NCBI GenBank assembly: GCA_019752015.1
Contig: JAIEMQ010000005.1
Coordinates: forward strand, 1 to 64,000
Reading direction: 5' to 3'
Length of the DNA: 64,000 nucleotides
From: Cyanobacteriota bacterium
GTDB lineage: Bacteria; Acidobacteriota; Vicinamibacteria; Vicinamibacterales; UBA2999
In this document: piece by piece, positions 44,693-57,642 of the stretch
How the letters are laid out: the number at the start of each line of letters is the position of its first letter
How positions within the stretch are numbered: position 1 is the stretch's first letter
Position numbers and translations under genes: made by a program
The notes under the pieces: model-generated
The model's input: the letters and a program-made list of their open reading frames with translations, nothing else
Told to the model about the DNA's origin: nothing
The model's database searches: none

Positions 44693-47488
44693 GCGTCCCA
44701 ACACCGCTCTTCGCCAAGTCTCCACGATGGCGCGATCGGGACCGCCAAGCTTCTGATGCCGCTCGACGTAGCTGCGGAATCGCCGCAGGTTGTCCTCGCT
44801 CAGGCTCTTGTCCTGCTGATGCAACCTGTACAGCACCTGGATCGCCACGAACAGCATCGGCTGATCGTCGTTCCTGGTGTTGTCGAGTTGATCCTTCAGC
44901 TTCGGCAGCGCGCCGCTGAAATCGCCGAGCATGGCGAGCGCGATCGCTTCGCGCTTCAGGCGCTCGTTGTCGTTGGGCCACGCGCTGGGGGCCTCTTCGA
45001 GGATGTCGAGCGCCTCGCGCCCGTCGCCGGTGCGCAGCAACGCATCGACCAGCACCGGATACACGGCGCCGGGGTTCTCGCTGAGCAGCGCCATTTCCCA
45101 CGCGCCGATGGCTTCCTTGTCGCGCCCGCTGACCGCGTGCGTGGCGCCGAGATAAAACGCCGCGCCCAGGAAGTCGGAGGCGCCCTTGAGCGTCTGCTGG
45201 AACCATGCCGCGGCCTGCGCGATTTCACCCTTGCTGAGCGCGCCGAGGCCGCGCACGAACGCAAGGTTCAGCTCGTCGTCAGCGGTGGCGCCGCGATCCG
45301 CGGGCGCATCGTAATTTCCGGACTTTGCTTTCTCGATCACCGCTTCAACTTCCGGCGTCGTCGGCGGATGCATGTCCGACAGTCCCTCGAGGAACGGCAT
45401 CACGACTTCGGGAGTGAGAATCGTCCGCGCCGAGAATCGGGGCACTGGCGCCAGGATCTTCGACGCCGCGATCGGCGCCGGCGGCGCATCGGGATCGAGC
45501 GGGACGCCGAGGTCGGGCGGCGGAGTAGAGGTATCCGCGACCGGCGACAGCATGAACGCGCGCGTCAGGCGCATTTCCGGTTGGCCCGGCGGCGCGATCA
45601 CCGCGCGCGCGACGTATTCACCAGGCGGCAACACGCCGAGCCGCATCTGCGCCGCGAACGCCCGTACGTTGCCGCGCGCGGCCTGTTTCGCTTCGACATT
45701 GACGAGCGGGTTGCCGTTTTCCGCGTCGGAGATCTGCAGCGTGACTTTCGTCCTGCCGAGCACGCCCTGATCGGGGCCCGTCATTTCGATCATCGCCGAG
45801 ACCATCTCGCTGTCGATCACGGTCGTCGGCCGCGGGCGCGGCAGCTCGCCGGCGACCGGCGGCTGTGCCACGAGCATCAAGTCCGACACGTGGAGGCCGC
45901 TCGGGCCGCGATTGAGGCGCGCATGGATCGAGTGGTGCACGCTGCCGCCGCGTCCGGTGTCGTCGACGGCGGCGACGCGCAGCGTGTAGTCGCCGGGATC
46001 GAGCGCCACCGAGGTGAGCAACAAGCGCGGCGACTCCATGCCCTTGCTCGCGGGCTGCAGCGTGAAAATGCCGCCGCGATTGACGACGATCTTGTCGTTC
46101 TTGTCCAGCACGATGACGCCGATCGGCCACTCGGCGGGCGTGGTCGCGGGGTCGCCGACTTCCGCGGTGATGACGACGCGGACCTTGCCGCCGCTTTCGA
46201 TCGAGGAATAACTCGCCACCCGCATCGGCAGGCCGCGCATCGGCAGCGGCGACTTGAGGACGTCGCCAAGCTGCTGCATCGGCGTCATGGCGGCGGTTGC
46301 TTTCGTAGTCTCTGCTGCGGCGACCGGCACCACGAACGTTGGCCGCGATCGCACCGTGAGGCCGCGCGGTTTCACCGACACCTTGATGCGCCGCTCGCGG
46401 CCGGTGCGATCCGATTCCATCGGCTCGAAGCCGAGCAGGTAATAGCCGGACAGCTCGCGGCCGAGGCGATCGAAGGCGATCGTGCCGTCGCCGGTCACCG
46501 TGCTCATCGAGCCGCGCGTTTGTCCCGCGACCTGTTCCAATCCCTCGCTCATCAACCCATCGTCGAAGAATCGCGACGAGCCGCCGCCGGGGGCGCGATC
46601 CTCGACGTCGAAGAATTGCTGCGACGGGCGGATCACGTGAATGGTGGCGCGAGCTTCCGCGGCGACCCGGCCGAGCGCCGTCATGCTGACGCGATCGCGC
46701 GCCACGAACATGCCCTCCGACATCAGCACGATGTTGACCGGCATCTTCAGCTGGACGAGATTCTTCAGCAGGGCCTCGAGCGCCTGCAGCGTGGCGCGCG
46801 CCCGGCCGCTGGCTTCGAGCAGCATGGCTCGCGCATCGCCTTCGATCTGATTGCGGCAGGCTTCGAGCTCCGGCCCGCTCATGCCGTTGCACTCGCGATC
46901 GACCGCGTTCTGGAACGTGCCGGAATCGTTGTTCTCGAGCGCCCACGCTTCGCTGATGTTGATGTGGTTCATGCCGATGCGCGAGCTGGCGGCGCCGGTG
47001 ACGCGCATGAGCGCATCGGAGACGCGTGTGCGATCGGCGGTGAACTCGACGCCGCCGAAGCCGGTCGGCAGGCGGGCGAGGCCAACGAGATCGCCGGGCG
47101 CGAGGCGATCGAACAGCGACTGCGCCGCGCGCAGGATCGAGCGATTGGCGCCGGCGCGCAGGCTGCCCTCATCGACCACGAAGAGCAGGAGTCGCCCGGT
47201 TGTCTGGGTCTCGTTCGAGGTGTATGCGGCCTCGCGCGGTGTCGCCGGCGTGGTTTCCGTCGCCGTCGTGGAGATGAATTGCACCGACTCGATCTTGCGC
47301 GGCTGGCCGTTGACCTCGAGCTCGAAGTCGGCGTCGGTCAGCGCCGGCACCGGCTTGGCCTCGCGATCGACGACGTTCACGTCCACGAGGACGATCTCGG
47401 CCTTGGTCTCGAACGACGGCCGCGGCACTTGCGGCGCGGGCTGCTGCGCAAAGAGACCGACCGAGCACACCACGGCAATCGCCGTCAC
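44690..47488 (-). CDS. Secreted VWFA-related protein with TPR-like C-terminus
   Basis: A 932-aa exported protein of the acidobacterial VWFA-related type. A signal peptide (TAIAVVCSVGLFAQQ) starts at the GTG chosen here; the frame stays open to a GTG at 47545, but those extra 19 residues are repeat-derived (KVKGERQKAEGRR). VWYYLVDVNVVDREAKPVPALTDADF-like early strands, then a VWA domain whose metal-site motif is degenerate (VVDEGSLR instead of DxSxS), several beta-sandwich parts and a helical repeat end (about 790-930). It lies directly downstream of a second VWA gene. Confidence 0.85.
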   Translation of the reverse strand: MTAIAVVCSVGLFAQQPAPQVPRPSFETKAEIVLVDVNVVDREAKPVPALTDADFELEVNGQPRKIESVQFISTTATETTPATPREAAYTSNETQTTGRLLLFVVDEGSLRAGANRSILRAAQSLFDRLAPGDLVGLARLPTGFGGVEFTADRTRVSDALMRVTGAASSRIGMNHINISEAWALENNDSGTFQNAVDRECNGMSGPELEACRNQIEGDARAMLLEASGRARATLQALEALLKNLVQLKMPVNIVLMSEGMFVARDRVSMTALGRVAAEARATIHVIRPSQQFFDVEDRAPGGGSSRFFDDGLMSEGLEQVAGQTRGSMSTVTGDGTIAFDRLGRELSGYYLLGFEPMESDRTGRERRIKVSVKPRGLTVRSRPTFVVPVAAAETTKATAAMTPMQQLGDVLKSPLPMRGLPMRVASYSSIESGGKVRVVITAEVGDPATTPAEWPIGVIVLDKNDKIVVNRGGIFTLQPASKGMESPRLLLTSVALDPGDYTLRVAAVDDTGRGGSVHHSIHARLNRGPSGLHVSDLMLVAQPPVAGELPRPRPTTVIDSEMVSAMIEMTGPDQGVLGRTKVTLQISDAENGNPLVNVEAKQAARGNVRAFAAQMRLGVLPPGEYVARAVIAPPGQPEMRLTRAFMLSPVADTSTPPPDLGVPLDPDAPPAPIAASKILAPVPRFSARTILTPEVVMPFLEGLSDMHPPTTPEVEAVIEKAKSGNYDAPADRGATADDELNLAFVRGLGALSKGEIAQAAAWFQQTLKGASDFLGAAFYLGATHAVSGRDKEAIGAWEMALLSENPGAVYPVLVDALLRTGDGREALDILEEAPSAWPNDNERLKREAIALAMLGDFSGALPKLKDQLDNTRNDDQPMLFVAIQVLYRLHQQDKSLSEDNLRRFRSYVERHQKLGGPDRAIVETWRRAVLGR

Positions 47489-47528
47489 GATCCTTCTGCC
47501 TTCTGCCTTCTGCCTTTCGCCTTTCACC
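47489..47528. repeat. AAGGCAG tandem repeat at a gene junction
   Basis: Four to five 7-8 nt units (CTTCTGC/CTTTCGC on the plus strand) start right at the TAA of the upstream VWA gene and end at the GTG chosen for the next one. Confidence 0.85.
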
Positions 47529-48680
47529 TTATGACCCCGGTGCACGATAGCCCTGCCGCGCGCGCACGTTGTAGTTGGTGCCGGGGATCTCCAGCTTCAC
47601 TTCGCGCCAGCTGCCGTTGCGCGCGGTGTTCTTCGACTCGTAGCCGATGATGTATTGGTTCGACAGCTCCTCGAGAATGTCCGCGAAGGGCTCGTCGAGC
47701 TGATCGCTGCGCTCGACGAACAGCGCGCGGCCGCCGCTCAATTCGACCAGCCGCTCGATTCCCGATTTGAGCTGTGCTTCCTTGACGCCGCGGCCGAGGG
47801 CGACCATGAACAGCGTGGCGTCGTTGGCACGCACCGCCTGTTCGACGGCATGAATCGTCGCGTGGCTGGTGCGATCGTCGCCGTCGCTGAACACCACGAG
47901 CACGCGCCGGCCCGGCTGCTTCGACAGTTGTTGCACGCCGCGGATGATGACGTCGTAGAGCGCCGTGCCGCCCCATGCGCTCAAGCGATCCACCGCGCGC
48001 GTCCGCTGCTGCGCGTTGGTCTCGCGCCTGGTCAGCGTGAACATATTGTCGTTGAAAGCGGCGAGCGTGACCTGGTCTTCGGCGCCGAGCGCGTTCAGGA
48101 ATTTCTTGACCGAGTTCTTGAGCTGCGGCATCGCCGTCGTCATGCTTTCGCTGACGTCGATCGCGACGACGATCTCGAGCGGCGATCCTTCGGAGGAGAA
48201 GTGGCCGATCGTTTGCGGCACGCCGTCTTCGAACAGGCGGAAGACTTTCCGTTCGAGGCCCGACACGAATCGCCCGTGATCGGTGACGACCGCGGTGACC
48301 TGCACGACATCGACGGACACCTTCTCGACCTGATTGAGGCCTTTCGTTCGCGAGCTCGCGATGATGCGGCCGCCGCCGATCAGGTTGCCGACCACGCGCA
48401 GCACGTGCGGGCGAACTTCAGCGCCGGCATCCCACTCGCACTCGGCCGCGATCGGATCGAGCACGTTGCAGACCTGCTTGCCGTCGGCGAAAAACAAAAT
48501 CTGCCCGACGCGCGTCGCCAACATCTTCGGAAGGACTTCCGCTTTCAGCCTGGTGAGGCCGCTGACGTACGAATCCGCCTCGGGAATGATGATGCGGATC
48601 GCGAGCTCCGCCGGGGGTTGCTGCGGCTCTTGTGCTGAAACAGCAATCGTGAGTGCGAGAAGAACGCCCATGGTCCGCAT
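47529..48680 (-). CDS. Secreted VWA domain protein (VWFA-related type)
   Basis: A 383-aa exported protein. Signal peptide 1-16. An N-terminal Ig-like part (25-110) is followed by the VKVSVDVVQVTAVVTDHGRFVSGLERKVFRLFEDG-type segment that opens VWFA-related domains, then the VWA domain with an intact metal site (DVSES, about 173-177; TAL at the GGTALYD loop; DGDD). The C-terminal QYIIGYESK...VRARQGYRAPG tail is shared with the protein at 62737. Binding partner unknown. It is upstream of and in tandem with the larger VWA gene. Confidence 0.9.
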   Translation of the reverse strand: MRTMGVLLALTIAVSAQEPQQPPAELAIRIIIPEADSYVSGLTRLKAEVLPKMLATRVGQILFFADGKQVCNVLDPIAAECEWDAGAEVRPHVLRVVGNLIGGGRIIASSRTKGLNQVEKVSVDVVQVTAVVTDHGRFVSGLERKVFRLFEDGVPQTIGHFSSEGSPLEIVVAIDVSESMTTAMPQLKNSVKKFLNALGAEDQVTLAAFNDNMFTLTRRETNAQQRTRAVDRLSAWGGTALYDVIIRGVQQLSKQPGRRVLVVFSDGDDRTSHATIHAVEQAVRANDATLFMVALGRGVKEAQLKSGIERLVELSGGRALFVERSDQLDEPFADILEELSNQYIIGYESKNTARNGSWREVKLEIPGTNYNVRARQGYRAPGS

Positions 48681-51409: not shown

Positions 51410-53084
51410 ATGAACTTCGATAATCTCCGGCAGGATATTCGTCTCGCGGCGCGCGGCCTGCTGCGCGCCCCGCCGTTCGCGGCCATCACGATCCTGACCC
51501 TGGCGCTCGGAATCGGGGCCAATACCGCGATTTTCTCGATCGTCAACGGCGTAATCCTGCGCCCGCTCGGCTACCCGAAGCCCGAGCATCTCATGTACTT
51601 GACGACGCAGTTCCCGGCGTTCAACTTCGATCAGTTCCGGGTGTCGCCGCCGGAATATTTCGAGTTCCGCGAGCTCAACCAGTCGTTCGCGGCGGTCGGC
51701 GCATACACGACCGGCGAGGTCAATCTCACCGCGGGCGATCGGCCATTGCGCGTGCTCGGCCTCGAGCGCACCGGCCAGAAAACCCACGTGTTCGCGCCGC
51801 TGCCGAAGACCGCTGAAGAGCGAAGACCAACTTCGGCCACATCCTGCAGATGCATCCGGTCCAGGAACAGATCGTCGGCGGTGCGAGCCGCGCGATCTCG
51901 GTGCTGCAGGCGGCGGTGGGATTCGTGTTGTTGATCGCGTGTGCGAACCTCGCGAAACTGCTGCTGGCGAGAGCGGAGACGCGTCATCGCGAATTCGCCG
52001 TGCGCACCGCGCTCGGCGCCGGCCGCGCACGATTGCTCCGTCAATTCATGACCGAAGGCGTGATGCTGTCGGTGATCGGCGGCCTGCTCGGTCTGTTGCT
52101 GGCGCGTGCCGGCGTGCAGGCGCTGATTCGCGTCTATCCCAACAGCCTGCCGCGCACCGCCGATGTTGCCGTCGATCCGATCGCGCTGTTCTTCACGCTC
52201 GGCGTGTCGATCGCGACCGGTCTCGTGTTCGGTCTCGCGCCGCTCATGCACACGCGCGTCAAGGGACTCGCGCTGGCGTTGAAGGAAGGCGGCGCTCGTG
52301 GCGCGACTGCCGGGTCGGCGCGTCACCACATTCGCCGCGGACTGGTGATGGCTGAAGTCGCGCTCGCCGTGATGCTCGTGATCGGCTGCGCCCGAGCTCG
52401 GGGCAGAAGGATCCGCCGTGGTTCACCGTGATCGGCGTCGCGAAGGATGTGAAGCAGGGCGGCATCGACAAGAAGACCGGCACCGAGATGTACTTCTTCG
52501 TCGATCAGACGGCGCTCGTGCCGCCGCCGTTTGGCGGCGCACCCGGCACCATGAATCTCGTGCTGCGCACGACGCTGCCGCCGGCGACGCTTCGCACCGC
52601 GATTGAAAGCGCCGTGCGCGAAGCGGATGCGTCCGTGCCGGTCGTGCGGCTGCGCGACATGAACGGCGTCTTCGAAGAATCGATCACGCGCCCGCGGCTG
52701 CTCGCGCAGCTGCTCGGCGGCTTTGCCGGACTGGCGTTGCTGCTCGCCGCGATCGCCACCTACGGTGTGCTCTCCTACATGGTCGCGGAACGCCGCCGCG
52801 AGATCGGCATCCGCATGGCGCTCGGCGCCGATCAGGGCAGCGTGCTCGGCCAGGTGATGAAGCAGGGATTGACGCTGACGACGATCGGCATCGTCGTCGG
52901 GCTGGCGAGCGCGATTGCGCTGAACAGATTGATTGCGTCGCTGTTGTTTGGCGTGCAGCCGACCGACGCCGTCACGATCGTCGCCGTCGTCGCGACGATC
53001 ACGCTGGTGGCCGCGATCGCGTGTGTGCTTCCGGCATGGCGCGCGTCGAGAGTGGATCCGAACGTCGTGTTACGGGACGATTGA
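51410..53084 (+). pseudogene. ADOP-type ABC permease, broken by two internal deletions
   Basis: Three pieces in three frames match consecutive parts of an ADOP permease. Piece 1 (51410 to about 51825) is the N-terminus with LTLALGIGANTAIFSIV. Piece 2 (about 51828-52390) begins at QMHPVQEQIVGGASRAI and includes the first FtsX domain. Piece 3 (about 52385-53084) begins at PPWFTVIGVAKDVKQGG and ends with the second FtsX (ASRVDPNVVLRDD). Compared with the usual 800 residues, roughly 130 are missing at the first joint and 250 at the second. It cannot make a working permease. The start is the ATG at 51410. Confidence 0.88.
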
Positions 53085-53111: not shown

Positions 53112-53553
53112 CTAATCTCGCTCGACTCCGGTCGGTCGCGATCGGCAGCGAATGCCGGACGGCGCGACGCCGAGCCCTCGTCTGAATGCGCGGTCCATGG
53201 CGCTTGTGCTTCGAAAACCGACACGTGCGGCTACCTCCTTGACCGACAAGAACGGCTCACACAGCAACAGGTCTTCAGCCCTCGTGATTCGAACGGCTGC
53301 AAGGATCAACGGAAACGAGCAACCTAACGACATGGTTAAACAGCCTCGACAAGTGATGCCGTGTCAGCCGAACTTCGACGGCCAGACTGCCTATCGACAA
53401 CTCAGCATCGTCATAGCTCGAGTCGATGCGCCAAAGGGCATGATGCACGCGGCGATCCAGACCGTTTGGATTCGTCACCACATCGCGCAAGGTGCGCGCG
53501 ATTTGTCTTGCGCTGCGCGCCGCGAGTTCCTGGTGGCTCGCCGTCAGATTCAT
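53112..53553 (-). pseudogene. Frameshifted AraC-family regulator
   Basis: Two overlapping frames reconstruct one C-terminal AraC DNA-binding domain. The first (53553 to about 53326) carries helix-turn-helix 1, SIGSLAVEVRLTRHHLSRLF. The second (from about 53324 to 53112) carries VAARVGFRSTSAMDRAFRRGLGVAPSGIR, helix-turn-helix 2. Removing a single extra base at about 53325 joins them as ...FNHVVGCSFPLILAA. The reconstructed protein is about 146 residues, DNA-binding domain only. It lies convergent to the decayed permease. Confidence 0.8.
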
Positions 53554-53830: not shown

Positions 53831-54583
53831 ATGCCGACCGGCACGCATCCAGCAACACGCTCGTTCATCTCGGGCCTGGCTTCACTCGTATTCGGTCCCC
53901 TGAAACAGGTCGGCGCGTCGGATTCGGGCGGCCGGTGGCGAGGGCGCGTTGTCAGCGTTCTTCTGGTCGCGGCCTTTCTCGCATTCACCGCGGGGTCGTA
54001 CTTTGCATTCAACCTGCTTCGCCAACAGCTGCGGCCTCTCGCCAATGCCATCGCCTCAGCCGGCGCCACTCCATACAGTCCCGCTACGGGTACCTACCTG
54101 ATCGCGTATGTCGTGACCGCATCGGATTGTGGCTGGTCGAATGAACAACACATGAAAAGTTTGTTCAGGACCATCCGTCCACAGCTGCGTACGAAGTACG
54201 GTGACACCTACGCACAGATCACCGTCGTCGCCGTGGATATGGATCAGGACCTCGACGCGGGATTGCGATTTTTGTCCGAGCTTGGCGGCGGATCGCCGGG
54301 GAACGCCTTCGATCAAATCGTCCTGGGCGGCCTCTGGCTCAACGAACAGCTCGTGCGGTTCATCTGGCGCGAGAACGTCACCGAGGCCCTGACGCCTCAA
54401 ATCGTTCTCGTTGAACCTCCCGTTGATGCGTCCACTTATCCGGTGGATTTCAAGCTTGGCGTGCAGGCGGACAAGGTCATCGCCAAGAAGAAGGGCGCCA
54501 GCGAGATCAAGAAGTGGCTCAGCGACGGTGCTCCTCTCGAGACGTCAACGGCCGCAGCGCAACCGTCGACAGGTCCGCGCTGA
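53831..54583 (+). CDS. Membrane-anchored thioredoxin-like protein with CXXS motif
   Basis: A 250-aa protein with one membrane helix (about residues 40-62). The exported part has a thioredoxin-like order: strand YLIAYVVTASDCGWS with C100-G101-W102-S103 at the position of the usual CXXC, helix EQHMKSLFRTIRPQL, strand ITVVAVDMD, and a C-terminal GASEIKKWLSDG helix. It ends in a disordered Ser/Pro/Thr tail. The single cysteine suggests a monothiol reductase, isomerase or binding role rather than a dithiol oxidase. A strong GGAGGAGA sits before the ATG. It heads a plus-strand run with two Cys-rich peptide genes. The fold is inferred from the pattern. Confidence 0.65.
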   Translation: MPTGTHPATRSFISGLASLVFGPLKQVGASDSGGRWRGRVVSVLLVAAFLAFTAGSYFAFNLLRQQLRPLANAIASAGATPYSPATGTYLIAYVVTASDCGWSNEQHMKSLFRTIRPQLRTKYGDTYAQITVVAVDMDQDLDAGLRFLSELGGGSPGNAFDQIVLGGLWLNEQLVRFIWRENVTEALTPQIVLVEPPVDASTYPVDFKLGVQADKVIAKKKGASEIKKWLSDGAPLETSTAAAQPSTGPR

Positions 54584-54633
54584 CAGGTTCCCGAATGAAT
54601 CGGAGAGTTTTCAATCACTGGATAGGAGGTCAC

Positions 54634-54846
54634 ATGTCACTTGCTCGAACCTTGCTCGGCTCGGCCATCCGTGGAATGCTGCTCGGGGCGTTCCTCGCGC
54701 TGGTCGCACCGGAGTCGCAGATGTCAGCCGGAGACGACGGCTGCAAGTGCGATGACGCCGGCTCCGGAAGCTACGCGTGCAACGCCGCTCAAACCGCCTG
54801 TGGGAACGGCGTCGAGGACTGCATCCTGAACTGCACGAGTAGCTAA
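54634..54846 (+). CDS. Cys-rich small secreted peptide 1
   Basis: A 70-aa precursor. A hydrophobic leader (about 5-25) ends with VAPES, followed by a small acidic core with six cysteines (C37, C39, C49, C56, C63, C67). GCKCDD, GSGSY and QTAC mark the core; the C-terminus is CTSS. The spacing fits up to three disulfides. Leader cleavage is not certain: no ideal AXA site is seen. A perfect GGAGG lies five to nine bases before the ATG. The family is not recognised; a bacteriocin-like, redox or signalling peptide is possible. It is 63% identical to the next peptide over the full length. Confidence 0.75.
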   Translation: MSLARTLLGSAIRGMLLGAFLALVAPESQMSAGDDGCKCDDAGSGSYACNAAQTACGNGVEDCILNCTSS

Positions 54847-54906
54847 TCGTCGCGCTGCGACAGGGCGCAATCTCAAGACGTCTCAATCACCGGATAGGAG
54901 GCTCCC

Positions 54907-55119
54907 ATGTCAGTTGCTCGAACGATTCTCAGCCTGGCCGTACGCGGCGCTGTGCTCGGCGCGTTGCTTGCCGCCGTCGCGCCCGAGTCACGCATTTCGG
55001 CCGGAGAGGAGGGCTGCAAGTGTGATGACAGCGGCTCGGGCGGCTACTCCTGCAGCTACGATCAGACGGCCTGCCTGGGCGGCGCAGAGCGGTGCCGCCT
55101 GGAGTGCATCTCCTCGTAA
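54907..55119 (+). CDS. Cys-rich small secreted peptide 2
   Basis: A 70-aa paralogue of the preceding peptide, with the same length and no gaps: 44 of 70 residues are identical. All six cysteines (37, 39, 49, 56, 63, 67), the VAPES leader end and GCKCDD are conserved. The variable positions are in the core between Cys49 and Cys67, including charge changes (Asp to Arg). The upstream Shine-Dalgarno segment TCAATCACCGGATAGGAGG is also duplicated. The two genes therefore arose by tandem duplication that included the translation signal. No function is recognised. Confidence 0.75.
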   Translation: MSVARTILSLAVRGAVLGALLAAVAPESRISAGEEGCKCDDSGSGGYSCSYDQTACLGGAERCRLECISS

Positions 55120-55191
55120 ACGCATCGACGCGTGAAACCGACGGGGCCGGCTGGCAACCGATCCCGTCGTTCATTCAGGTAGACTCTGCGT

Positions 55192-57642
55192 ATGTCAGCG
55201 GGACTGGTGACCTCACTGAGCGCTGAAGTGCCGAGAGGCATTCGCGAGCTGCTCCGGTCGCCCGGTTTTGCCGTCCTCGCCGTGACCACGCTGTCGATCG
55301 GCTTGGGCATCACAACGGCGATGTTCGCCGTCATGGACGCCTTGTTGTTCCGCCCTCCCTTCCATGTGGCAGACGCGGACCACGTCGTGCGCGTGCAGTT
55401 CAGGGTCAGGGGCGAGCCGTCCTTAATCGAACGCACTCATTACCCTCACTTCCAGACGTTGCGGGCAAGCGGAGCGTTCCATGCGGTCGCGGCTTATACG
55501 ATCGCTTCGGTCTCGATCGGTTCGGGTACCCAGGCGGAACTGGGCACGGCCATGCTGGTGTCAACCGAATTCTTTGGCGCACTTGGCACCACACCTCATC
55601 GCGGGACGTTCGTCACTGACCAGGCTGGCGCGGCCGATGGTGGTGACCGCGCGATCATTTCTCATGCGTTCTGGCAGAGCCGCTTCGCGGGGACACCGAC
55701 GGCGGTCGGCTCGAGCCTCACGATCGATCGCAAGACGTATGTGATTACCGGCGTAACACCGCCGACATTTCAAGGACTGAGCGCACGGCCCATCGACGTA
55801 TGGTTGCCGCTCGAGCACGCCTCGCTCGCCGGCGTGGCGCCGGCCAATTGGCGCGTTAATGCACGCCCGTTCTGGCTGTCGCTCGTGGCCCGGCAGCCCC
55901 GTGGCAGCAACCGCATCGTGTCCGAACAACGCGCCACTGCCGTGCTTCACGCCCAGCGTGCGGCGGGCGACAAGAGCCCGGTGCTGGACGTGGCGACGGC
56001 ATCCATCGTTCCCGGGCGTGGCGGAAACCGGACGCTCGAGGGCCGAGTGTCCCTCTGGCTCTCGGCACTCTCAGCCCTGGTGCTGTTGATCGCGTGTGCG
56101 AACGTCACCAATCTGTTTTTGGTGAGAGCCGCAATGCGGCAGCGCGAGCACGCAGTCAGGCTGACGCTCGGCGCATCGCGGTGGCACCTTGCCTGGCGGG
56201 TGCTCTTTGATACCGGCACCATCGTCATGGCCAGCGTCGCGCTCGCGCTACTCCTCTCGGCGCTCATTCGTCAGGCCGTCGCTGGACTTCTGCTCGGCGA
56301 CATTCCGCTGTCGCGGGAACTGCTCGATCCACGAACGGCGGCCATCACGACGGCGAGCGGAGTGCTCGTGTTCATCTTGGTCGCCGCGATTTCGCTCTCG
56401 CAGCTGCTAACCGCTGAACGGCGTCTCGACTTGCTAGCGCGCAGCACGCACGCGCGTGGGTTCGGCGCCGGCACTCGCCGCATTCTCCTGGCCGTCCAGG
56501 GATGCCTGTGCTTCATTCTGGTGTTCGTCGCAGCGTTGTTCGAATCGAGCCTACGGCGAGTCAACGCCCTGGATCTGGGAGTCGAACTGGATCAGACCAT
56601 TCAGTTGTCGATCACCGGCGGAGGCAGTGTGCGCAGCGCCGATGAGAACCGCCGGATTTTCGAATCCATCCGTGCTGAGCTGTCGCGCCATCCGGCAGTC
56701 GAGCGGGTGACCTTGACGGAGGGCTCGCCCTTCATGTCCGGAAGCGGAGCCGGCCCCTGGACCAGGGAACGAAGCGCCAAGGAGTTGTGGGGTCAGGGCA
56801 ACGAGGTGGCGTATCGCAGCGCCGTAGGCTCCGGCTTTTTCGCGACCGTCGGAGCACGCACCCTGCGTGGACGCGATATCACCACCGCGGACACGGCTGG
56901 CGCCGAACGGATCGCTGTGATCAATGCGCCTCTCGCCAAGTACTTGTGGCCCGGCAAGGACGCCCTCGGCGAATGCATGTGGCTTGATGACGAGCCGTCG
57001 TGTCTGCGTATCGTCGGCGTGCAGGAAGGCGTGTGGAAATTCCGCATGCTCGAGCGGAACCAGATGGCCGTGTACTTGCCGCTGGCGCAGGCCGGAGATT
57101 CGGTGCCAAGTGCCGTGTTCATCAGGCCGCGGGGCGACGCGCGGGAGTTTCTTCCGCAGGTTCGGGCCATCGTTCAGACGCTTTACCCGGATCTTCCTGC
57201 GGTGAGGGCGGTGATCGTGCGCGACGTTGCCGATCCCGAATCCCGGCCGTGGCGCCTCGGCACAGTCGTCTTCACCGCGATGGGGGCGGTCGCACTCCTG
57301 ATCGCGTCGGTCGGTCTCTACAGCATCGTGGCCATGGGCACCACGGCCCGAATCAAGGAGCTGGGCATTCGTACCGCGCTCGGCGCGCGATGGAGACATT
57401 TGACACGAGTCGTGGTCTGGGAAGGGTTGGGATCCGTGGGGATCGGGCTCCTGGTGGGTGCCGTTGCCGTTGCCGGAATCAGTGACTGGCTAGCCGGTGC
57501 TTTGTATCAGACGCCTCCGAGAGATCCCGCGATCTTCATCGAGACCGTCATCGTGATGCTTGGGGTGTCTGTCGCAGCCGTCGTCACGCCGGCGGTTCGC
57601 GCGATCATCCTGGATCCCGCGACGGTTCTCCGTTCTGAATAG
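55192..57642 (+). CDS. ADOP-type duplicated MacB/FtsX ABC permease
   Basis: An 816-aa inner-membrane permease with both MacB-PCD and FtsX repeats. It begins EVPRGIRELLRSPGFAVLAVTTLSIGLGITTAMFAV; FtsX helices at about 290-310 (LVLLIACANVTNLFLV), 340-365 and 385-410, then 700-720 and 755-810. It ends PAVRAIILDPATVLRSE. The N-terminal TLSIGLGITTAM differs from the usual TLALGIGANTAI of the family. Its position behind the Cys-rich peptides makes it a candidate exporter for them, but no ATPase is next to it; one at a distance, such as the gene at 21737, would be needed. The start is ATG at 55192. Confidence 0.88.
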   Translation: MSAGLVTSLSAEVPRGIRELLRSPGFAVLAVTTLSIGLGITTAMFAVMDALLFRPPFHVADADHVVRVQFRVRGEPSLIERTHYPHFQTLRASGAFHAVAAYTIASVSIGSGTQAELGTAMLVSTEFFGALGTTPHRGTFVTDQAGAADGGDRAIISHAFWQSRFAGTPTAVGSSLTIDRKTYVITGVTPPTFQGLSARPIDVWLPLEHASLAGVAPANWRVNARPFWLSLVARQPRGSNRIVSEQRATAVLHAQRAAGDKSPVLDVATASIVPGRGGNRTLEGRVSLWLSALSALVLLIACANVTNLFLVRAAMRQREHAVRLTLGASRWHLAWRVLFDTGTIVMASVALALLLSALIRQAVAGLLLGDIPLSRELLDPRTAAITTASGVLVFILVAAISLSQLLTAERRLDLLARSTHARGFGAGTRRILLAVQGCLCFILVFVAALFESSLRRVNALDLGVELDQTIQLSITGGGSVRSADENRRIFESIRAELSRHPAVERVTLTEGSPFMSGSGAGPWTRERSAKELWGQGNEVAYRSAVGSGFFATVGARTLRGRDITTADTAGAERIAVINAPLAKYLWPGKDALGECMWLDDEPSCLRIVGVQEGVWKFRMLERNQMAVYLPLAQAGDSVPSAVFIRPRGDAREFLPQVRAIVQTLYPDLPAVRAVIVRDVADPESRPWRLGTVVFTAMGAVALLIASVGLYSIVAMGTTARIKELGIRTALGARWRHLTRVVVWEGLGSVGIGLLVGAVAVAGISDWLAGALYQTPPRDPAIFIETVIVMLGVSVAAVVTPAVRAIILDPATVLRSE

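What the first reader, a model, noticed from the sequence alone, without database searches (positions are those of the whole stretch)
53831..57642. Cluster with a CXXS thioredoxin-like anchor, two paralogous six-Cys peptides and a MacB-like permease
Seen: four genes on one strand with gaps of 50-72 bases; two 70-aa peptides with 63% identity and identical Cys positions (37, 39, 49, 56, 63, 67); duplicated Shine-Dalgarno segments. Known: MacB/FtsX permeases can export peptides, and thioredoxin-like proteins handle disulfides. Inference: a secreted disulfide-rich peptide system with its own thiol helper and exporter. I do not know a described system with this set.
Basis: partly seen in the sequence, partly recalled or inferred. 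Interest (0 to 1): 0.88.

Follow-up and report, generated by a model that had tools for sequence, protein, structure and literature searches.

The report
Secreted six-cysteine peptides with thiol partner
A bacterium of the phylum Acidobacteriota carries two small exported peptides, probably stapled by three disulfide bonds, next to a membrane thioredoxin-like protein; the same pairing, in many sequence variants, occurs in other bacterial phyla, is in no family library we searched, and has no known function.

Summary
The peptides show coding signs and are not unique. A genome of the Gemmatimonadota group (G668) holds five clear homologs and a weaker sixth, two of them in tandem after a related thiol gene at the same spacing as here. 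The thiol protein (CGWS; weak thioredoxin-like signal; in no Pfam or NCBIfam family) anchors a wider, apparently undescribed module. Of 43 loci with it, 32 have a signal-like, mostly six-Cys peptide on the same strand within 5.2 kb, and 34 a propeller-model match within 3 kb. With 1.5 kb flanks, 19 of 43 thiol loci but 0 of 29 other permease loci of the genome have a candidate peptide. The exporter idea is the weak part: the permease is an orphan ADOP type without ATPase, one of 72 matches in the genome, and it follows the thiol gene in 3 of 43 loci, 3 of 5 acidobacterial ones. Most likely: Sec export, signal peptidase I cleavage, three disulfides formed with help from the dedicated thiol protein, and an extracytoplasmic job (antagonism or signalling) still unknown.

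The parts
53831..54583 (+). Thioredoxin-like CXXS protein, 250 aa, one N-terminal membrane helix by eye (about residues 40-61), rest presumed periplasmic
   Evidence: family of 37 aligned relatives in A5; tree clade 100/100 with L127, L128, L132
54128..54139 (+). CGWS motif codons (C100-S103), the only Cys of the protein
54620..54629 (+). Shine-Dalgarno segment GGATAGGAGG of peptide 1
   Evidence: duplicated upstream of peptide 2
54634..54846 (+). Peptide 1, 70 aa: signal-like N-terminus (taken as residues 1-32 by analogy with peptide 2; the script's site pattern fitted after residue 25) and six-Cys core (about 54730-54843)
   Evidence: homologs L127, L132
54892..54901 (+). Shine-Dalgarno segment GGATAGGAGG of peptide 2
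54907..55119 (+). Peptide 2, 70 aa: signal-like N-terminus (residues 1-32, site pattern ISA) and six-Cys core (55003-55116)
   Evidence: homologs L127, L132
55192..57642 (+). ADOP-type orphan permease (two MacB_PCD and two FtsX stretches, no ATPase); membership in the module uncertain

Best explanation
The cluster is a lineage-specific copy of a small module that makes a secreted, disulfide-stapled peptide. Shown from sequence: peptides with coding signs, an N-terminal hydrophobic stretch, a loose xxA site and a core of six conserved Cys; a membrane-anchored protein of a distinct family with one conserved Cys (mostly CXXS); recurrent pairing of the two across three phyla. Inferred: the peptides leave the cytoplasm by Sec and are cut by signal peptidase I near residue 32, giving a core of about 38 residues; the membrane thiol protein meets them in the periplasm and, through its single Cys, helps form or shuffle three disulfides (an isomerase or holdase role, with oxidation by general Dsb enzymes); the folded core then acts outside the cytoplasm, as a weapon against close competitors or as a signal. 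In Acidobacteriota an ADOP-type permease was added to the module; a role in extraction or release of the peptide is possible but not shown.
For: Pairing: 32 of 43 thiol loci have a peptide-profile match on the same strand within 5.2 kb (33 either strand), 10 have two or more. That profile was built from most of these peptides, so 104 is partly circular. The rule-based scan gives 26 of 43 (28 either strand); in the same 43 loci it gives 39 candidates in 371 kb within 5.2 kb of the thiol gene (one, L112_1117, looks spurious) against 1 in 184 kb farther away. With 1.5 kb flanks it is 19 of 43 thiol loci against 0 of 29 other ADOP loci. Homology of this subtype: a model of the five strongest G668 peptides finds the window pair at E 2e-19 and 4e-19; G668 has six matches to the subtype model, the sixth weaker; tandem peptides lie 480 and 756 bases from the thiol gene, centre to centre, in L127 and 488 and 761 here. 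The thiol proteins of window, L127, L128, L132 form a 100/100 clade. Coding: dN<dS in six of seven peptide pairs, dS saturated in the seventh; the L125/L126 pair has only five differences. Processing: a loose [AVSTIL]xA site in 35 of 35; signal peptidase I model match beside 4 of 43 loci, one of them confirmed with TIGR02227 (L056). Disulfides: six Cys with conserved end spacings (x4 in 24 of 35 first, 26 of 35 last pairs); DsbA-like genes within 7 kb in 4 of 41 loci, two confirmed by Pfam. Thioredoxin-like: Thioredoxin_8 match E 6.6e-6 in one divergent relative, just under the cut-off.
Against: The thiol protein of the window matches no Pfam model and no NCBIfam model better than E 0.08, PDB matches are insignificant (3gl3 DsbE E 0.47), comparison with a TlpA-like protein aligns the Cys but with hhalign probability 2.4% (E 0.019), and the only structure model was poor (pLDDT 41). 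CXXS can also mean a non-redox binding protein. The signal evidence is not independent: candidates were selected for a hydrophobic stretch, and the xxA pattern is loose (peptide 1 fits it only at residue 25). Ten of 43 loci have no profile peptide (one of these, L140, has a rule-based one), and the two remotest acidobacterial relatives (L068, L069) show no peptide, propeller or permease, L069 being cut by a contig end. The window has no propeller match. The broad C-x4-C peptides and the window GCKC subtype are linked by architecture and neighbourhood only: a model of 28 broad peptides does not find the window peptides (E 0.46 and 1.4). No evidence bears directly on activity, and most cores are acidic (27 of 35 net negative), unlike cationic antimicrobial peptides.
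Confidence: 0.6

Rival explanations
1. The CXXS protein is not a folding helper but the receptor, immunity or carrier partner of the peptide (a thioredoxin fold that lost redox chemistry), and the disulfides are made by the general Dsb system.
For: CXXS in 24 of 37 and CXXC in only 5 of 37; 27 of 37 aligned segments hold a single Cys, and two of 37 (L069, L134) have none at the aligned site; separate DsbA-like genes lie near 4 of 41 loci.
Against: The one Cys is among the columns conserved in 90% or more of the 37 rows, which fits chemistry better than mere binding; a minority keeps CXXC.
Confidence: 0.25
2. The peptides are structural or metal/redox-handling surface proteins that work with the lipoprotein-like 6-bladed propeller, not released effectors or signals.
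For: A propeller-model match lies within 3 kb on the same strand in 34 of 43 loci; cores are mostly acidic.
Against: The window locus has no propeller match in 64 kb yet has the peptides; loops between Cys vary strongly while the Cys stay; two or more peptides occur in 10 of 43 loci.
Confidence: 0.2
3. The ADOP permease is the peptide exporter.
For: ADOP directly downstream of the thiol gene (after the peptides here) on the same strand in window, L049 (ATGA overlap) and L056 (overlapping frames). With 72 ADOP matches in 5.9 Mb I estimate under 1% chance per locus, if the other genomes have a like density.
Against: 0 of the 38 loci from the Gemmatimonadota group and the Rhodothermales genome has one (three of these, L111, L117, L125, hold under 1 kb downstream and L063 1.1 kb); the peptides have their own signal-like N-terminus; no ATPase domain; the window ADOP is not sister to the other two in the tree, though one origin is not ruled out, and it scores higher with other ADOPs of its own genome than with that of L049 (243 against 142 bits, by different programs).
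Confidence: 0.15
4. Chance: spurious small frames beside unrelated genes.
For: GC-rich DNA has many long random frames; credible homologs were not found in 396 phylum genomes and 43 family genomes.
Against: Codon-position pattern and dN<dS, homologs in another phylum with the same gene order, near-empty controls.
Confidence: 0.02

Closest known systems
NVEALA peptides (Pfam PF14055) with DUF5128 propellers in Bacteroidota (recalled; no paper found)
   Same: Small signal-bearing Cys-containing peptides near 6-bladed propeller genes (recalled); of the 2 propellers tested here one passes the PF17170/DUF5128 cut-off and one falls just under it
   Different: None of the 35 peptides lists PF14055 or a convincing Pfam family; different leader and Cys pattern (recalled); the CXXS family is the constant partner here
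Disulfide-bearing bacteriocins with a dedicated thiol-disulfide oxidoreductase, such as sublancin with BdbB (recalled, not looked up)
   Same: Ribosomal peptide with disulfides and a helper thiol protein encoded beside it
   Different: Signal-like N-terminus with xxA site instead of a double-glycine leader and peptidase-type ABC exporter; CXXS not CXXC; mostly acidic cores
ADOP-family duplicated permeases (TIGR03434)
   Same: The fourth gene matches over nearly its full length (E 3e-154)
   Different: Below the curated cut-off (515 against 622 bits) and the longest end branch among 32 ADOPs compared
Periplasmic thioredoxin-like proteins (TlpA/DsbE/DsbA)
   Same: Membrane anchor, Cys motif after a first strand-like segment, TPQ before a late strand-like segment (cis-Pro-like; inference by eye), weak similarity
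   Different: CXXS, own conserved FDE...GR.W and TPQ motifs, no model in Pfam or NCBIfam

Membership tests
NVEALA peptides (PF14055) | Match to the Pfam model | tested here: not met
   Not among the families listed for 35 peptides at E<=0.1, nor at E<=1; that the library copy holds PF14055 was presumed, not checked
Thioredoxin superfamily, redox-active | CXXC active site | tested here: not met
   Window CGWS; 24 of 37 CXXS, 5 of 37 CXXC
Thioredoxin superfamily | Thioredoxin fold or model match | tested here: inconclusive
ADOP permease (TIGR03434) | Score above the curated cut-off | tested here: not met
   515.1 against 622.3 bits, residues 15-816, E 3.1e-154
ADOP/FtsX permease fold | MacB_PCD and FtsX domains, each twice | tested here: met
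   87.9 and 68.1 bits, two stretches each, above the cut-offs for the whole protein
MacB ABC exporter | N-terminal ATPase domain | tested here: not met
   No ABC ATPase domain among the Pfam matches
Cationic antimicrobial peptide / defensin | Net positive core | tested here: not met
   27 of 35 negative, 5 positive; window -4 (peptide 2) and -6 (peptide 1, with the longer cut)
Double-glycine-leader bacteriocin | GG leader and peptidase-containing ABC transporter | tested here: inconclusive
   Hydrophobic signal-like N-terminus and loose xxA site instead; no peptidase or ATPase domain in the fourth gene; the rest of the genome was not searched for such a transporter
Peptide-thiol-propeller module described here | 6-bladed propeller (PF17170-like) beside the thiol gene | tested here: not met
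   No propeller-model match in the 64 kb window; within 3 kb in 34 of 43 loci
Peptide-thiol-propeller module described here | Signal-like six-Cys peptide on the same strand within 5.2 kb | tested here: met
   Two in the window; 32 of 43 loci

The most novel reading that the evidence does not exclude
A previously undescribed class of Sec-exported three-disulfide bacterial peptides, hypervariable in their loops and spread patchily over at least three phyla, each dedicated to a membrane-anchored single-Cys thioredoxin-like protein that folds or escorts it; the peptides mediate antagonism or signalling between cells of little-studied environmental phyla, and the window copy reached Acidobacteriota by transfer of, or shared ancestry with, a Gemmatimonadota-type cluster.
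Probability: 0.4. Interest if true: 0.88.

Novelty: new variant of a known kind. Interest (0 to 1): 0.77.

Why it matters
Small frames of 65-110 aa are often missed or left unnamed. This one anchor family uncovers about forty candidate exported Cys-rich peptides in the loci held here, in phyla from which few bioactive peptides are known (background, recalled). It offers a directly testable question: what does a single-Cys thioredoxin-like protein do with a six-Cys peptide? It also offers a handle (the FDE...GR.W and TPQ motifs) to collect more. If the peptides act on other cells they are a new source of stable disulfide scaffolds; if they are signals, they would be secreted disulfide signals in diderm bacteria.

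Tried and rejected
Direct search for the peptides in relatives failed. 396 phylum genomes: 28 genomes, own included, with a match at E<=0.1, all weak apart from the own copies; 20 places were read. The best (L011, E 0.011) is a frame antisense to a long frame that I read as phytoene-desaturase-like and was rejected as chance; several others hold stops. 43 family genomes: own copies and one match with a stop (L030). Genome contigs with the two-peptide alignment: 149 pattern matches, none confirmed. ADOP at E<=1e-150 in 193 class genomes: own gene only; the threshold was too strict to show orthologs. Thiol protein in 60 relatives: 11 other genomes with E 0.016 or worse, not pursued except L004, whose frame looked unrelated. 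In one search, 18 of 396 genomes, own included, matched at E<=0.05; G421 (2.5e-7) was followed at once, G170 later when a better profile raised it to 6e-21; the rest were not followed. G170 (L068) and G412 (L069) show no peptide, propeller or ADOP. Plasmids: 3 weak records at E<=10, none at E<=0.001 with the L127 thiol protein; phages none at E<=0.001 with the L062 one.

Considered and rejected: spurious frames; MacB exporter with ATPase; one shown clade of the three module-linked ADOPs (L049 and L056 pair with 100/97 but on long branches, the window one elsewhere with weak support; one origin not excluded); broad sequence homology of all peptides (model A fails). In that test 61 of 4000 shuffled window peptides reached E<=1 with model C, best 0.009, against 7e-7 and 4e-6 for the real ones. 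The promoter scan gave nothing: 0 promoter-like sites, 6 terminator-like against 3.5 expected, none of them just after the peptide genes.

Left out of the 35-peptide set: the second L110 peptide, L112_3970 (8 Cys), L112_1117 (looks spurious), L062 (C-terminus differs from L064), L063 (8 Cys), the L128 pair (8 Cys), a third L127 peptide, L109_5895, L119_8757, L121 (copy of L122), L125 (near copy of L126), L141 and the L115 fusion. Left out of the 37-row thiol alignment: L114, L122 (near copy of L121), L133, L136, L137, L141 (partial hits or frames with stops nearby); L069, L134, L138, L140 were further left out of the tree. The 43 loci include near copies (L121/L122, L125/L126) and several contig ends, so counts are not of independent events.
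Full report
Observation. The two 70-aa peptides share 63% of residues and all six Cys positions; the DNA duplication includes the upstream GGATAGGAGG. Differences between the copies are commonest at third codon positions, with dN below dS, so both are or were translated. They are the only copies found in the genome. Pfam and NCBIfam know neither the peptides nor the thiol protein; the fourth gene is an ADOP-like permease with MacB_PCD and FtsX stretches and no ATPase.

From one locus to a family. Searches with the peptides alone found nothing credible. Searching with the thiol protein gave one distant relative at E 2.5e-7 (G421), whose gene overlaps by four bases (ATGA) an ADOP-like permease gene. 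A two-row profile then found G444 (1e-11), where the order is six-Cys signal peptide, thiol protein, ADOP-like permease, signal peptidase I. G444 is in the window's class and G421 in its order, so the window is from Acidobacteriota, class Vicinamibacteria (inference). With eight rows, 19 of 150 genomes drawn from the phylum of G546 (the Gemmatimonadetes genome of L065, itself counted) matched at E<=1e-8, some with several copies; the Rhodothermales genome has five matches and one Gemmatimonadetes genome three at E<=1e-5, three of these eight with in-frame stops.

What sits around the thiol gene. I held 43 loci. A rule-based scan (hydrophobic stretch, at least five later Cys, Shine-Dalgarno) found a peptide on the same strand within 5.2 kb in 26 of 43, 28 counting both strands. 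In the same loci it found 39 candidates in 371 kb near the thiol gene, one of them (L112_1117) probably spurious, and 1 in 184 kb farther away. With 1.5 kb flanks, which is what the control loci have, it is 19 of 43 against 0 of 29 other ADOP genes of the window's genome and 0 of 28 other loci. A profile from those peptides gave 32 of 43 same strand, 33 either strand, 10 with two or more (partly circular). A model from seven propellers picked by eye found a match within 3 kb on the same strand in 34 of 43, within 300 bases in 27; a signal peptidase I model matched in 4 (L056, L062, L064 were its seeds; L119 is new); ADOP directly downstream in 3. DsbA-like genes recur in 4 of 41 loci within 7 kb. 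Of two propellers tested, one passes the PF17170 (6-bladed beta-propeller) cut-off and one falls just under it.

The window's own subtype. In one genome of the Gemmatimonadota group (G668) two clusters carry GCKC peptides: two in tandem after the thiol gene (L127), at 480 and 756 bases from it, centre to centre, against 488 and 761 here, and three in L132. phmmer with window peptide 1 gives 4e-15 and 1e-14 for the L127 pair; a model of the five peptides gives 2e-19 and 4e-19 for the window pair. In the thiol tree the window, L127, L132 and L128 form one clade (100/100) apart from the other Acidobacteriota. Among 102 genomes searched in the family of G668 only G668 itself had the subtype at E<=1e-5, with six matches, the sixth weaker (5.6e-7). 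The distribution is patchy, which suggests transfer or frequent loss (inference).

The peptides. In 35 peptides aligned, all have a loose [AVSTIL]xA site within 16 residues before the first core Cys; since they were chosen for a hydrophobic stretch, the signal evidence is not independent, and peptide 1 of the window fits the pattern only after residue 25. The first Cys pair is C-x4-C in 24 and the last C-x4-C in 26; the window subtype has C-x1-C and C-x3-C. Cores are mostly acidic: 27 of 35 net negative, 5 positive. Of seven peptide pairs compared, six have dN<dS and one has saturated dS. No Pfam or NCBIfam family fits and no solved structure matches significantly (best E 0.031, a UQCRH chain). 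The subtype and the broad class are joined only by design and neighbourhood, not by significant sequence similarity (model A).

The thiol protein. One Cys is conserved; the motif is CXXS in 24 of 37, CXXC in 5, CXXA in 4, other in 4. Support for a thioredoxin fold is modest: Thioredoxin_8 at 6.6e-6, just under its cut-off, in one divergent relative (L069) that is joined to the family by profile (E 2e-11); a Cys-on-Cys alignment with a TlpA-like protein at E 0.019 but probability 2.4%; and insignificant PDB matches including a DsbE.

The permease. The genome holds 72 ADOP-like matches at E<=1e-20, so an ADOP neighbour is not rare, but finding one directly downstream on the same strand in all three of the stronger acidobacterial loci is more than I would expect by chance. 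The two weaker acidobacterial relatives lack it (L068; L069 has only 163 bases held downstream), and so do all 38 loci of the Gemmatimonadota group and the Rhodothermales genome, four of which hold under 1.5 kb downstream. In the tree the three module-linked ADOPs are among the four longest end branches of 32 and do not form one clade, though a single origin is not ruled out. I treat it as an acidobacterial add-on of unknown role, not as the general exporter.

How it likely works. Sec export, signal peptidase I cleavage, disulfide formation with a dedicated membrane thiol protein, and action outside the cytoplasm. The first three follow from sequence features and the known biology of such features; the last step, the nature of the action, is open. 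Variable loops on a fixed Cys frame, multiple peptides per locus and a patchy spread fit an arms race or private signalling better than housekeeping (inference), but the acidic charge argues against a classic membrane-active antimicrobial.

Literature. Ten full-text searches of the held PMC library found nothing on such a module: NVEALA 0 papers, DUF5128 0, the ADOP phrase 1, a Dyadobacter description seen in the listing only; searches returned none; one search listed 1 and searches listed 15 of 58, 12 of 79 and 12 of 211, with no on-topic title. No paper was opened. Bacteroidota NVEALA clusters and sublancin/BdbB are named from recall.

Verdict. The thiol partner is likely right, the exporter part doubtful, and a propeller is the more usual third partner elsewhere.

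Noticed in passing
window 51413-53081: A second ADOP-like permease just upstream is split over three frames, so it looks decayed or carries frameshifts.
   Followed up: partly
window 53112-53553, - strand: Possible remnant of an AraC-type regulator: the 73-aa frame matches HTH_18 (1.6e-12); the neighbouring frame 53275-53553 has no significant match.
   Followed up: no
L115 9705-10415 (G564): A six-Cys peptide domain with signal seems fused in frame to a longer helical-looking C-terminal part.
   Followed up: partly
L049 1757-2629, - strand (G421): Protein after the thiol-ADOP pair ending in four Cys (CVMSACQMGRWCEYDGC), possibly a variant peptide carrier; no Pfam match at E<=1.
   Followed up: partly
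L128 10027-10503 (G592): Two nearly identical 65-aa, 8-Cys signal-like peptides on the strand opposite to a thiol gene of the window's clade.
   Followed up: partly
L065, L116, L117: Two adjacent propeller genes before one thiol gene; L065 and L116 also have two different Cys-rich peptides, which may mean one propeller per peptide.
   Followed up: no
window 47145-47534: The only other candidate of the peptide scan in the 64 kb window, a long frame with weaker Cys clustering.
   Followed up: no
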